A stretch of DNA of 64,000 nt from Mesorhizobium sp. NZP2077. GTDB taxonomy: Bacteria > Pseudomonadota > Alphaproteobacteria > Rhizobiales > Rhizobiaceae. The notes below the pieces were generated by a model. That model saw only the letters and a list, made by a program, of their open reading frames with translations, ran no database searches and was not told the origin of the DNA. Position 1 is the stretch's first letter, and every line of letters starts with the position of its first letter. Below are positions 15,001 to 19,477 of this stretch, piece after piece. The DNA lies in contig NZ_CP051293.1 in assembly GCF_013170805.1 (NCBI RefSeq), forward strand, positions 3,912,001 through 3,976,000, written 5' to 3'. The translations under genes were made by a program, and so were the position numbers.

Positions 15001-16419
15001 TCATTCTGCGGCCTCGGCAGTTTCTGGCTGCGCCGGCAATCCCAACCATTGCCGACAGTCGGTGCGCGCACGCGACGTGATCGCATGTCTTTTAGCAACC
15101 GTCTTGTCCTTGCCGCGCAGACGCTTGCGTTCGACCTTCACCGCTTCCACTGGCGGGAACAGGCCGAAATTGACATTCATCGGTTGGAAGGAGCGCTTTC
15201 CCGGTTCGTCCTCGGAAACGATATGGCCCCCGGTGATGTGGTTGAGCAGGGCGCCGAAGGCCGTGGTCAGCGGCGGCAGCGAGGGTGCCTGGCCGACCCT
15301 CTCGGCGGCGGCGAAGCGGCCGGCGAGCAGGCCAATGGCAGCGCTTTCGACATAGCCCTCGCACCCGGTGATCTGGCCGGCAAAGCGCAAGCCCGGGCGC
15401 GATTTCAACTGCAGCGAAGCGTCGAGCAAGGTCGGCGAATTGATGTAGGTGTTGCGGTGCAGTCCGCCGAGGCGAGCGAAGTCGGCGTTTTCCAGGCCCG
15501 GAATGGTGCGGAACACGCGGACCTGTTCTGCGTGCTTGAGCTTGGTCTGGAAGCCGACCATGTTGTAGAGCGTGCCCAGCGCATTGTCCTGCCGCAGCTG
15601 GACGACGGCATAGGCCTTTACCGTCGGGTTGTGCGCATTGGTCAGCCCCATCGGCTTCATCGGCCCGTAGCGCAGCGTCTCGACGCCGCGTTCGGCCATG
15701 ATCTCGATCGGCAGGCAGCCGTCGAAATAGGGCGTGCCTTCCCATTGCTTGAACTCGGTCTTCTGGCCGTCGACCAGCGCCTGAACGAAGGCAAAGTACT
15801 GGTCCTTGTCCATCGGACAGTTGATGTAGTCCTTGCCGGTGCCGCCCGGTCCGACCTTGTCGTAGCGTGACTGGAACCAGCAAATGTCCATGTCGATCGT
15901 GTCGAAATGGATGATCGGGGCGATGGCGTCGAAGAAGGCCAGCGCATCGGCGCCGGTTGCTTCGGCGATCGACTGTGCAAGCGAAGGCGCGGTCAGCGGG
16001 CCTGTGGCGATGATCGCCTGGTCCCAGTCGGCCGGCGGCAGGCCGGGCACTTCCTCGCGCTGGATGGTGATCAGCGGGTGCGCTTCGAGCTTTTTCGTCA
16101 CCGCTTCGGAGAAACCGTCGCGGTCGACGGCGAGCGCGCCGCCGGCCGGCACCTGGTTGGCGTCGCCGGCGCTCATAATCAACGAGCCGGCCAACCGCAT
16201 CTCGGCATGCAGCAGGCCGACGGCGTTGTTTTCGGCATCGTCGGAGCGGAAGGAATTGGAACAGACGAGTTCGGCCAGGCCATCGGTTTTGTGCGCGTCC
16301 GTACCGCGAACCGGGCGCATTTCATGCAGCACGACGGGGACGCCGGCTTGCGCTGCCTGCCATGCGGCTTCTGAACCAGCGAGACCGCCGCCAATGACGT
16401 GGATAGGGTTTTTGCTCAT
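15001..16419 (-). CDS. trmFO: Methylenetetrahydrofolate-tRNA-(uracil-5-)-methyltransferase TrmFO
   Basis: TrmFO makes m5U54 in the T-loop of tRNAs with methylenetetrahydrofolate and FAD. The 472-residue protein begins with the FAD-binding dinucleotide motif [18 protein letters not shown], followed by [15 protein letters not shown] and [12 protein letters not shown]. The later catalytic-region segments [20 protein letters not shown] and GGHIVSEDE are present. I chose ATG 16419; a longer frame adds 12 unconserved residues. Downstream of the sRNA array on the same strand. Confidence 0.95.
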
Positions 16420-16499: not shown

Positions 16500-16620
16500 C
16501 CCTGAAAACAACAACACCCGCCGGGGGAGGAGGTCCGGCGGGTGTCGTTTTTGGGGTCGACCCTCGGGAGGAGGTGAAGATCGACCGTATTCGTCATCGC
16601 CGGGGAGGAGGTCGGCTTTG
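16500..16620 (-). ncRNA. Cuckoo-type anti-Shine-Dalgarno sRNA, unit C
   Basis: On the minus strand this unit has three stem-loops whose loops all read ACCTCCTCCC, at plus-strand positions 16603-16612, 16566-16575 and 16525-16534. The last has an 11-bp stem (ACACCCGCCGG / CCGGCGGGTGT at 16514-16545) followed by TGTTGTTTTC and could act as the terminator. The loop mimics the 3' end of 16S rRNA. Such loops, downstream of DUF1127 genes, define the Cuckoo RNA family of Rhizobiales and Rhodobacterales. Strand and ends are inferred. Confidence 0.75.
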
Positions 16621-16678
16621 ACGAAATCTCTTTCGCGTTTTGAAAAGGGGCGAAACCCCTTGGAGCAAGATACATTTT

Positions 16679-16799
16679 GCTCCGGAGAGACAGCGCCCGC
16701 CGCGGGAGGAGGTGCGGCGGGCGCCGTTTGGTTGGCCAACCCTCGGGAGGAGGTGAAGGTCCGGCCTATTCGTCATCGCCGGGGAGGAGGTCGGCTCTG
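16679..16799 (-). ncRNA. Cuckoo-type anti-Shine-Dalgarno sRNA, unit B
   Basis: This is the middle unit, exactly 179 bp from unit C. Its three ACCTCCTCCC loops lie at 16782-16791, 16745-16754 and 16704-16713, with the same 37- and 41-bp spacing. The third stem is GCGCCCGCCGC / GCGGCGGGCGC. It is separated from unit C by a GGAGCAAAATGTATCTTGCTCC hairpin and an AAGGGGTTTCGCCCCTT hairpin followed by TT, which may end the transcript or be processing sites. Confidence 0.75.
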
Positions 16800-16857
16800 A
16801 CGAAATCTCTTTCGCATTTCGAAAAGGGGCGAAACCCTTTGGAGCAAAATTCATTTT

Positions 16858-16978
16858 GCTCCGGGGAAACAGCGCCCGCCGCGGGAGGAGGTGCGGCGGG
16901 CGCCGTTTTGGTGGTCAACCCTCGGGAGGAGGATAAGGGCTGACCGTTCGCTGGAGGTCGGGGAGGAGGTCGACCCCA
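16858..16978 (-). ncRNA. Cuckoo-type anti-Shine-Dalgarno sRNA, unit A
   Basis: This is the unit nearest the DUF1127 genes. The loops lie at 16961-16970, 16924-16933 (here TCCTCCTCCC, one base different) and 16883-16892. It starts only about 12 bp after the stop of the nearer DUF1127 gene, so the sRNAs are probably cut from a DUF1127 read-through transcript. In Rhodobacter sphaeroides the comparable CcsR RNAs are co-transcribed with a DUF1127 gene from a heat-shock sigma promoter. Confidence 0.75.
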
Positions 16979-16989
16979 GCGAAATTCCG

Positions 16990-17130
16990 TTAGATCGCCC
17001 GGCGGGCGATGATCTTGATTTCGTCGCGGACGATACCGAGATCATGCAGCTGACGGTTCGAAAGGCGACCCAGCTCGGTAACCGTCTCGCGATAAACGCG
17101 CCAGTTACGATAGTTGCGGATCAGGTTCAT
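16990..17130 (-). CDS. DUF1127 small protein, copy 1
   Basis: A 46-residue, Arg-rich protein (MNLIRNYRNWRVYRETVTEL, then GRLSNRQLHDLGIVRDEI) with the DUF1127 core LSxRxLxDLGIxRxxI. Short DUF1127 proteins in rhizobia are linked to RNA turnover and phosphate/stress traits; in Rhodobacter the protein encoded beside the CcsR sRNAs affects RNA maturation. It lies directly upstream of the sRNA array on the same strand, 49 bp after copy 2. Confidence 0.9.
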   Translation of the reverse strand: MNLIRNYRNWRVYRETVTELGRLSNRQLHDLGIVRDEIKIIARRAI

Positions 17131-17179
17131 TGTCGTTCTCTTTTCAGAAACTTGTTCGGACCATTCGCGGTCCGAAGAA

Positions 17180-17320
17180 TTAGACCGCCTTGCGAGCGAC
17201 GTAAGGAATGTCGCTGCGGCTGATGCCGAGGTCGGTCAGTTCACGGTTGCTCAGGCGGCTCAGCTCGGACACGGTGTCCCGGTAGCGGCGCCAGTTGCGG
17301 TAGTTGCGGATCAGGTTCAT
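17180..17320 (-). CDS. DUF1127 small protein, copy 2
   Basis: A second 46-residue DUF1127 protein (MNLIRNYRNWRRYRDTVSEL, then SRLSNRELTDLGISRSDI), about two-thirds identical to copy 1 with an identical first ten residues, so the two are tandem duplicates. It is the first gene of the probable DUF1127-DUF1127-sRNA transcript. A GAGAACTACC leader precedes the ATG. No convincing sigma-32 promoter could be placed by eye upstream. Confidence 0.9.
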   Translation of the reverse strand: MNLIRNYRNWRRYRDTVSELSRLSNRELTDLGISRSDIPYVARKAV

Positions 17321-17556
17321 GGTAGTTCTCGTTTCGTCTTTCTTGCGGATCATTCCGTTTGTGTACGAACCATAAATAGGCGGGCCTATATCGATTTAAA
17401 AGCGCTATGGCTGCATGGCAGCAATGCAAATTGTGCAATGCAACATTAACGCGCCTTCACGGACCTGACACAAAGAAGCCAGAATCAGAAAGTGCCGTGG
17501 CGTCAACGGTTTGGCTGGTTCGGCTGAAAAAAACGACCTAGCGGGGGAGGCAGGGG

Positions 17557-19394: not shown

Positions 19395-19477
19395 TGGTGC
19401 GGGTAGAGGGACTCGAACCCCCACGATCTCTCGCCAGAACCTAAATCTGGTGCGTCTACCAGTTCCGCCATACCCGC
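19395..19477 (-). tRNA. tRNA-Leu (TAG)
   Basis: Read on the minus strand the gene begins GCGGGTATGGCGGAACTGGT and ends in TACCCGC-A-CCA. The acceptor stem GCGGGTA/TACCCGC pairs fully, the anticodon arm CCAGA-TTTAGGT-TCTGG gives a TAG anticodon, there is a class II extra arm, and the T-arm reads GGGGGTTCGAGTCCCTC. The CCA end is encoded. No duplicated 3' end was found nearby, so there is no sign of an integrated element at this tRNA. Confidence 0.95.

What the first reader, a model, noticed from the sequence alone, without database searches (positions are those of the whole stretch)
16500..16985. Three tandem anti-Shine-Dalgarno sRNA units with exact 179-bp period, three loops each
Nine ACCTCCTCCC (once TCCTCCTCCC) loops occur on the minus strand at spacing 37-41-101-37-41-101-37-41. 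Each sits in a stem. Loops copying the 16S rRNA 3' end should bind ribosome sites of many mRNAs. The Cuckoo family is known, but described members as I recall have two such loops per RNA; three per unit, including one in the terminator-like stem, and the conserved AAGGGG/GGAGCAAAA hairpins between units deserve study.
Basis: partly seen in the sequence, partly recalled or inferred. Interest (0 to 1): 0.8.

Follow-up and report, generated by a model that had tools for sequence, protein, structure and literature searches.

The report
Three-copy ribosome-site-mimic small RNA array
The repeat is a known type of bacterial small RNA (alpha-r14, the NfeR1 family) present three times in a row behind two tiny DUF1127 protein genes; the less expected part is a shared control sequence upstream that suggests one stress-sensing regulator may switch on the whole set in related bacteria.

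Summary
Nine CCTCCTCCC loops lie on the minus strand with the stated spacing and a 179-bp period. They are three tandem copies of Rfam family ar14 (RF02344, the NfeR1 family), 89-98 bits against a gathering score of 58.8. Unit 1 starts two bases after the stop codon of the second of two co-directional DUF1127 genes. This resembles the known ccaF1-CcsR (CIN1) locus, so the array is most likely the processed 3' UTR of a DUF1127 transcript. Beyond the finding, the predicted promoter carries an operator that fits published LsrB/VtlR motifs at their published positions. Its 15-mer occurs in 116 of 119 genomes of the genus, the reversed control in none; in 103 of 106 compared it lies 421-914 nt upstream of an ar14 copy. 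The published VtlR motif is enriched upstream of such arrays in Rhodobacterales too (32 of 49 loci; 0 of 373 background windows). Expression, processing, LsrB binding and targets are untested. Known kind of RNA; the order-spanning operator is worth following.

The parts
17415..17437 (-). Predicted LsrB/VtlR (LysR-type) operator: TGCA-N6-GCAT at 17424-17437 and GCAT-N3-TG-N3-T at 17415-17427, overlapping
   Evidence: the only exact CAWTGCWGCCATGCA in the 7.69-Mb genome; 15-mer in 116 of 119 genomes of the genus
17374..17402 (-). Predicted promoter: -35-like CTTTTA, 17-nt spacer, -10-like CTATTT
   Evidence: CTTTTAAA and CCTAT conserved in the alignment; no sigma-70 match by the E. coli-type scan; RpoD or RpoH not decided
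17180..17320 (-). First DUF1127 small protein gene (46 aa)
   Evidence: PF06568 E 1.9e-17
16990..17130 (-). Second DUF1127 small protein gene (46 aa)
   Evidence: PF06568 E 3.1e-15
16867..16987 (-). ar14 unit 1, three hairpins each with an anti-Shine-Dalgarno loop
   Evidence: RF02344, 98 bits, E 8.6e-17; fold
16841..16862 (-). Spacer 1 hairpin GGAGCAAAA-UGAA-UUUUGCUCC, lineage-specific
   Evidence: Fold; GGAGCA in 6 of 39 spacers of the genus
16821..16840 (-). Spacer 1 conserved hairpin-like AAAGGG-UUUCG-CCCCUUUUC, terminator- or processing-like
   Evidence: Pattern in 36 of 39 spacers of the genus; in the isolated spacer fold another pairing is preferred
16688..16808 (-). ar14 unit 2
   Evidence: RF02344, 90.4 bits, E 4.3e-15; fold
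16662..16683 (-). Spacer 2 GGAGCAA hairpin (stem reduced to 7 pairs)
   Evidence: Fold
16645..16661 (-). Spacer 2 conserved hairpin AAGGGG-UUUCG-CCCCUU
   Evidence: Fold
16509..16630 (-). ar14 unit 3
   Evidence: RF02344, 89.1 bits, E 8.1e-15; fold
16505..16548 (-). Last hairpin with a T-rich tail (TTGTTGTTTT): predicted terminator of the array
   Evidence: Sequence; units 1 and 2 have weaker tails TGTTTCC and TGTCTCTCC. The consensus scan did not list it on the minus strand; its loop is longer than the scan allows
15001..16419 (-). Downstream gene of the GidA/TrmFO family, same strand, not part of the array
   Evidence: PF01134 E 1.1e-99; the name trmFO is from recall of the subfamily

Best explanation
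Three tandem alpha-r14 (NfeR1-family) small RNAs lie in the 3' UTR of a two-gene DUF1127 transcript. A promoter near 17374-17402, switched on through an LsrB/VtlR-type operator at 17415-17437, makes one transcript (DUF1127, DUF1127, ar14 x3) that ends at the T-rich terminator near 16505. Ribonuclease cutting in the spacers releases three RNAs with nine interchangeable CCUCCUCCC loops in all. These pair with purine-rich ribosome-binding sites and block translation of many mRNAs under stress. Shown here: family identity, strand bias of the structure, gene order, conservation, operator sequence and its position relative to a predicted -10, an LsrB gene in the genome. Inferred from relatives: co-transcription, processing by RNase E with help of the DUF1127 protein, LsrB activation, translational silencing.
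For: Rfam hits above gathering score. Three exposed loops per unit. 189 G.U versus 6 A.C or C.A cells of 2046 on the minus-strand structure, and 16 of 33 pairs with two or more Watson-Crick types. DUF1127 upstream on the same strand in 90 of 118 named tandem loci, 84 of the 105 with at least 400 nt upstream. Operator: 116 of 119 genomes against 0 of 119 for the reversed control; co-located in 103 of 106 compared. Published positions: LsrB site -72 to -57 in nfeR1 (also given there as -72 to -60) and -61 to -49 in abcR1; here -70 to -57 and -60 to -48 from the predicted -10. The genome has a TrxB-like gene and a LysR gene next to one of three ar15 (AbcR) copies; the LysR protein matches PDB 9HH1, A. 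tumefaciens LsrB, at E 1.1e-144. CcaF1-CcsR precedent (passages of PMC10253847 and PMC8625941).
Against: No transcript data. The scan found no sigma-70-type promoter and did not list the final hairpin as a minus-strand terminator; compared by eye with the consensus sequences quoted the hexamers match RpoD at 8 of 12 and RpoH1 at 10 of 13 bases, so the sigma factor is open. In S. meliloti NfeR1 has its own promoter, and only one of its six ar14 copies is detected on northern blots (PMC7143759), so the copies here could be silent. The S. meliloti target ntrB has only GGAG before its start in this genome. CAWTGCWGCCATGCA at up to 2 mismatches occurs 119 times in the genome (reversed control 6), so loose motif matches are weak alone. 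The strong hairpin-3 stems between units could end transcription early.
Confidence: 0.75

Rival explanations
1. Each ar14 unit is an independent gene with its own promoter, as NfeR1 is in S. meliloti, and the DUF1127 genes are only neighbours.
For: NfeR1 has its own sigma-70 promoter and LsrB site. In many Rhizobium-group loci the best box match is at about -75 from the first loop, directly before the RNA.
Against: In the window unit 1 begins two bases after the DUF1127 stop codon, leaving no room for a promoter outside the coding region. The two spacers are 58 and 57 nt by Rfam boundaries and variable in the genus; the only exact operator in the genome is upstream of the DUF1127 pair.
Confidence: 0.15
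2. The array is a decayed or silent duplication kept by drift; the dispersed copies do the work.
For: Only one of six S. meliloti copies is detected. Copy number varies: hairpin-3 count 2 in 21 and 3 in 9 of 30 loci of the genus.
Against: Loops are nearly invariant while stems vary with pairing kept; ar14 and the operator are kept across the genus.
Confidence: 0.07
3. The feature acts on the plus strand, as a row of Shine-Dalgarno-like GGGAGGAGG sites or as a plus-strand terminator cluster.
For: The scan lists six terminator-like stems on the plus strand and one, outside the array, on the minus strand; the plus strand's own consensus fold pairs 98.9% of cells.
Against: That fold needs 417 G.U cells and has a weaker consensus energy (-40.4 against -48.9). 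The scan allows loops of at most 8, which excludes the 10-nt minus-strand loops. The Rfam hits, the DUF1127 genes and the downstream gene are all minus strand.
Confidence: 0.03

Closest known systems
Alpha-r14 / NfeR1 family (Rfam RF02344)
   Same: Length, three hairpins, CCUCCUCCC in the loops, variable stems; several copies per genome
   Different: Here three copies sit in tandem behind two DUF1127 genes, not one copy with its own promoter
CcaF1-CcsR1-4 operon of Rhodobacter sphaeroides (CIN1 locus)
   Same: DUF1127 gene followed by tandem anti-Shine-Dalgarno RNAs on one strand
   Different: The related R. sphaeroides RNA RS0680a has two loops, ar14 three; two DUF1127 genes here; the published promoter there is RpoHI/RpoHII
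SmelA075 / SmelA099 (Cuckoo RNAs of S. meliloti)
   Same: Three or four hairpins with the same loop
   Different: Tandem arrangement not stated in the section read; the Cuckoo paper itself is not held
AbcR1/AbcR2 (alpha-r15)
   Same: Anti-Shine-Dalgarno RNAs; AbcR1 is LsrB-controlled
   Different: Different family (RF02345), two motifs, Hfq-binding; three separate loci in this genome

Membership tests
Alpha-r14 (RF02344) | Covariance-model score over the gathering score | tested here: met
   98, 90.4 and 89.1 bits against 58.8
Alpha-r14 (RF02344) | Three hairpins with unpaired CCUCCUCCC in each | tested here: met
   for all three units; covariation on 62 units of the genus
Alpha-r14 (RF02344) | Own sigma-70 promoter with conserved upstream motif (a feature of NfeR1, not of the Rfam model) | tested here: not met
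   Not before single units; the motif lies upstream of the DUF1127 pair
Alpha-r14 (RF02344) | Silences mRNAs by pairing at ribosome-binding sites | not testable with these tools
   Only possible sites counted
CIN1 locus (DUF1127 plus CcsR/Cuckoo RNA) | DUF1127 gene directly upstream, same strand | tested here: met
   30 of 30 loci of the genus examined show two DUF1127-like frames
CIN1 locus (DUF1127 plus CcsR/Cuckoo RNA) | Co-transcription and RNase E processing | not testable with these tools
   Read for R. sphaeroides only, passages
CcsR-type RNAs of R. sphaeroides | Two loops per RNA (RS0680a) | tested here: not met
   Three loops per unit; so a CIN1-like locus, not a CcsR RNA
LsrB/VtlR regulon | Published binding consensus at the published distance | tested here: met
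   GCAT-N3-TG-N3-T at -60 to -48 and TGCA-N6-GCAT at -70 to -57 from a predicted -10
LsrB/VtlR regulon | LsrB binds and activates | not testable with these tools
   Only presence of an lsrB gene in the genome was tested: met

The most novel reading that the evidence does not exclude
An LsrB/VtlR-type operator is an ancestral switch of DUF1127-plus-anti-Shine-Dalgarno RNA operons in both Rhizobiales and Rhodobacterales. A redox-sensing LysR regulator, including an unrecognised LsrB-like relative in Rhodobacterales, would thereby drive one translation-silencing regulon made of DUF1127 proteins, ar14/CcsR arrays and AbcR RNAs. DUF1127 genes reported as VtlR targets would then often be the first genes of RNA operons whose RNA part has been overlooked.
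Probability: 0.45. Interest if true: 0.6.

Novelty: new member of a known kind. Interest (0 to 1): 0.4.

Why it matters
The RNA itself is known, so the finding corrects a mistaken claim of novelty. What may matter is the control. LsrB/VtlR targets are described as DUF1127 genes, AbcR and NfeR1 separately; the shared operator suggests that DUF1127 genes and anti-Shine-Dalgarno RNAs are often one unit under one regulator. It also offers a reason why giving back DUF1127 genes one by one did not restore a vtlR-mutant phenotype in B. melitensis (passages of PMC12595884); whether those genes precede ar14 copies in that species was not checked here.

Tried and rejected
Rejected: three loops as a new architecture. 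Rejected: the GGAGCAAAA hairpin as a conserved part (6 of 39 spacers). Considered: GGAGCAAAATG in the spacers as start of a translated small frame. It is open in the window, but most other spacers lack GGAGCA, so I did not pursue it. Weak result: ntrB as conserved target. My first DUF1127 search by a fixed pattern found 15 of 119 loci and was replaced by an HMM. The 16S 3' end was not found in the genome by exact pattern; it may be masked or differ, so the likeness of the loops to 16S rests on recall. My groups of named loci (on) were assigned by hand from record titles: what I did not assign elsewhere was called Rhodobacterales, and the Mesorhizobium group includes one Rhizobiaceae MAG and one Pseudaminobacter. 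In the upstream alignment the script took the second DUF1127 gene in 3 of 30 loci (L008, L014, L023), so 27 show the operator region.

Full report
WHAT IS THERE. Nine CCTCCTCCC motifs lie on the minus strand between 16525 and 16969, and no other match occurs in the 64-kb window; 0.59 are expected and none of 100 shuffles reaches nine. Spacing is 37-41-101-37-41-101-37-41, and the repeat period is 179 nt. Rfam assigns three tandem ar14 RNAs, 16867-16987, 16688-16808 and 16509-16630, all minus strand, all well above the gathering score. Each folds into three hairpins with the motif unpaired. The genome holds three further ar14 copies at separate loci.

STRAND. From 30 loci of the genus (the window's own and the 29 best hits, so a sample chosen by score) I took 64 units and kept 62 after dropping duplicates and units with N. 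The consensus structure on the minus strand has 33 pairs; 2016 of 2046 cells pair, 189 by G.U; of the 30 others only 6 are A.C or C.A; 16 pairs show two or more Watson-Crick types. The same helices on the plus strand would turn the 189 G.U cells into A.C. Against this, the plus strand folded on its own terms also pairs 98.9% of cells, but with 417 G.U and a weaker energy (-40.4 against -48.9). I read this as support for minus-strand transcription, not proof.

SURROUNDINGS. Upstream on the same strand are two DUF1127 genes, 17320-17180 and 17130-16990 (PF06568); unit 1 starts at 16987. Downstream is a GidA/TrmFO-family gene. All 30 loci examined show two DUF1127-like frames. Of 119 genomes of the genus, 119 have an ar14 match at E 0.001 and 118 one over the cut-off. 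Hairpin-3 counts give two units in 21 and three in 9 of the 30 loci; this pattern count may miss a variant third unit, as in L010 and L030, and L013 has Ns. Three are named outside Alphaproteobacteria (L097, L126, L131), have no DUF1127 upstream and look like chance or contamination. DUF1127 lies upstream on the same strand in 90 of 118, or 84 of the 105 with at least 400 nt upstream. Named Mesorhizobium loci share arrangement and operator, so the host is probably Mesorhizobium (inference).

SPACERS. A hairpin-like sequence of the form AAGGG-UUUCG-CCC(U) is found by pattern in 36 of 39 spacers of the genus (another pattern in the same script counted 32; spacers with N or with a further loop inside were dropped), with forms such as AAAGG/CCUUU and AGAGG/CCUCU that keep pairing. 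The last unit ends in TTGTTGTTTT, the inner ones in weaker tails; the consensus scan did not list the last hairpin as a minus-strand terminator, its loop being longer than the scan allows. This fits one transcript with a final terminator and cutting or partial termination in the spacers, which is inference.

OPERATOR. The region before the first DUF1127 gene holds a stretch nearly invariant in the 27 loci where it was aligned. It contains TGCA-N6-GCAT, reported as the LsrB site of nfeR1 at -72 to -57 (passages of PMC10746234, which also gives -72 to -60), and GCAT-N3-TG-N3-T, reported as the LsrB consensus at -61 to -49 in abcR1 (passages of PMC8844928). It differs at 2 of 15 bases from the reported Brucella VtlR motif CAATGCAGCCATGCA (passages of PMC12595884). 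Counting from the predicted -10, the two sites lie at -70 to -57 and -60 to -48. In the window TGCA-N6-GCAT occurs 7 times against 3.3 expected, so that motif too is weak alone. GCATTGCTGCCATGC occurs in 116 of 119 genomes of the genus (misses G024, G050, G111), reversed control 0 of 119; there are 132 sites, so some genomes have a second one elsewhere. For 106 genomes I compared positions, and in 103 the box lies 421-914 nt upstream of an ar14 copy on the same strand; G013, G020 and G051 do not show this, and 10 box-bearing genomes were not compared.

ACROSS ORDERS. In 57 hand-grouped Rhodobacterales loci the most frequent upstream 10-mers include CTGCCATGCA and GCTGCCATGC, each in 18 loci and 0 background regions; background regions have frequent words of their own, up to 21 loci, probably from a conserved neighbouring gene. 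I tested the published VtlR motif on 103 of the 118 loci; 15 were dropped for short upstream sequence. Matches within two mismatches: Rhodobacterales 32 of 49 (background 0 of 373 windows, permuted motifs 1 of 980), Rhizobium group 12 of 34 (1 of 255, 3 of 680), Mesorhizobium group 5 of 10 (1 of 75, 1 of 200; 10 of 10 within three), others 5 of 10 (0 of 76, 0 of 200). In the Rhizobium group 11 of 34 best matches have four or five mismatches. TGCA-N6-GCAT: 44 of 49 (13 of 373), 18 of 34 (7 of 255), 8 of 10 (2 of 75), 5 of 10 (0 of 76). The shorter LsrB consensus is noisier: Rhizobium 30 of 34 (22 of 255), Mesorhizobium 10 of 10 (12 of 75), Rhodobacterales 17 of 49 (21 of 373), others 4 of 10 (2 of 76); its reversed control hit 0 of 34, 2 of 10, 2 of 49 and 1 of 10. 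Loci are related, so these are not independent events.

THE REGULATOR. The genome has a 298-aa LysR protein behind a gene that I read as TrxB by eye, and before one of three ar15 (AbcR) copies; the LsrB consensus lies just upstream of that ar15 and was not seen in the other two loci. The protein matches PDB 9HH1 (E 1.1e-144), which PMC11975290 gives as its LsrB structure (passages). The same paper (section 31) calls LsrB unique to Rhizobiales. In 10 hand-picked Rhodobacterales genomes the best hit to it has 39-42% identity and E 2.2e-75 to 5.5e-72, while the second-best hit per genome has 28-30% and E 2.0e-38 to 1.5e-32; in 3 Rhizobiales genomes the best hit has 63-73%. No TrxB motif was found beside it in the 9 Rhodobacterales loci fetched, against 3 of 3 in Rhizobiales. 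It is a candidate reader of the box there, no more.

TARGETS. GGGAGGAGG 3-10 nt before ATG: 5 sites, control 1. GAGGAGG: 141 sites, control 14. Not all ATGs are gene starts. The ntrB leader (gene read by eye next to dusB) has only GGAG, so the S. meliloti loop to ntrB is not evident here.

WHAT IS KNOWN. Alpha-r14 RNAs with three redundant loops, LsrB activation of NfeR1 and six copies in S. meliloti are published (passages). CcsR1-4 come from the 3' UTR of ccaF1 with RNase E and CcaF1, and DUF1127 with CcsR-like RNAs is called CIN1 (passages). The Cuckoo, del Val 2012, CcaF1 2021 and CcsR 2015 papers are not held. In the search, none of the 14 papers listed holds both LsrB or VtlR and CcsR; one search listed only 10 of 71 papers. 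That does not show the link is unpublished.

VERDICT. A real but ordinary set of alpha-r14 RNAs in a CIN1-like operon; new member of a known kind. The conserved operator across two orders is the part that adds something, and it rests on sequence alone.

Noticed in passing
Rhodobacterales genomes behind L046, L057, L072, L094, L106, L114, L129, L140, L144, L150: One LsrB-like LysR protein per genome, clearly separated from the next LysR hit, although LsrB is described as unique to Rhizobiales. TGCA-N6-GCAT occurs in 5 of the 9 fetched loci around it, without a control.
   Followed up: partly
L004-L006 (own genome): Three dispersed ar14 copies with no DUF1127 gene near them; L005 and L006 are alike and their first loop reads ACTCCTCCC.
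   Followed up: partly
L004 and L194 (own genome): An ar14 copy and an ar15 copy each lie beside a phasin-like gene (identified by eye).
   Followed up: no
window 16990-17320: Six DUF1127 matches in the genome; only the two here lie beside ar14 RNAs.
   Followed up: yes
L097, L126, L131: The tandem pattern appears in records named Geodermatophilus, Lachnospiraceae and Acidobacteria, without DUF1127; probably chance or contaminated assemblies.
   Followed up: no
own genome: The expected 16S 3' end GGATCACCTCCTTTCT (recalled) was not found exactly; rRNA may be masked.
   Followed up: no
window 19398-19477: A tRNA gene on the minus strand.
   Followed up: no
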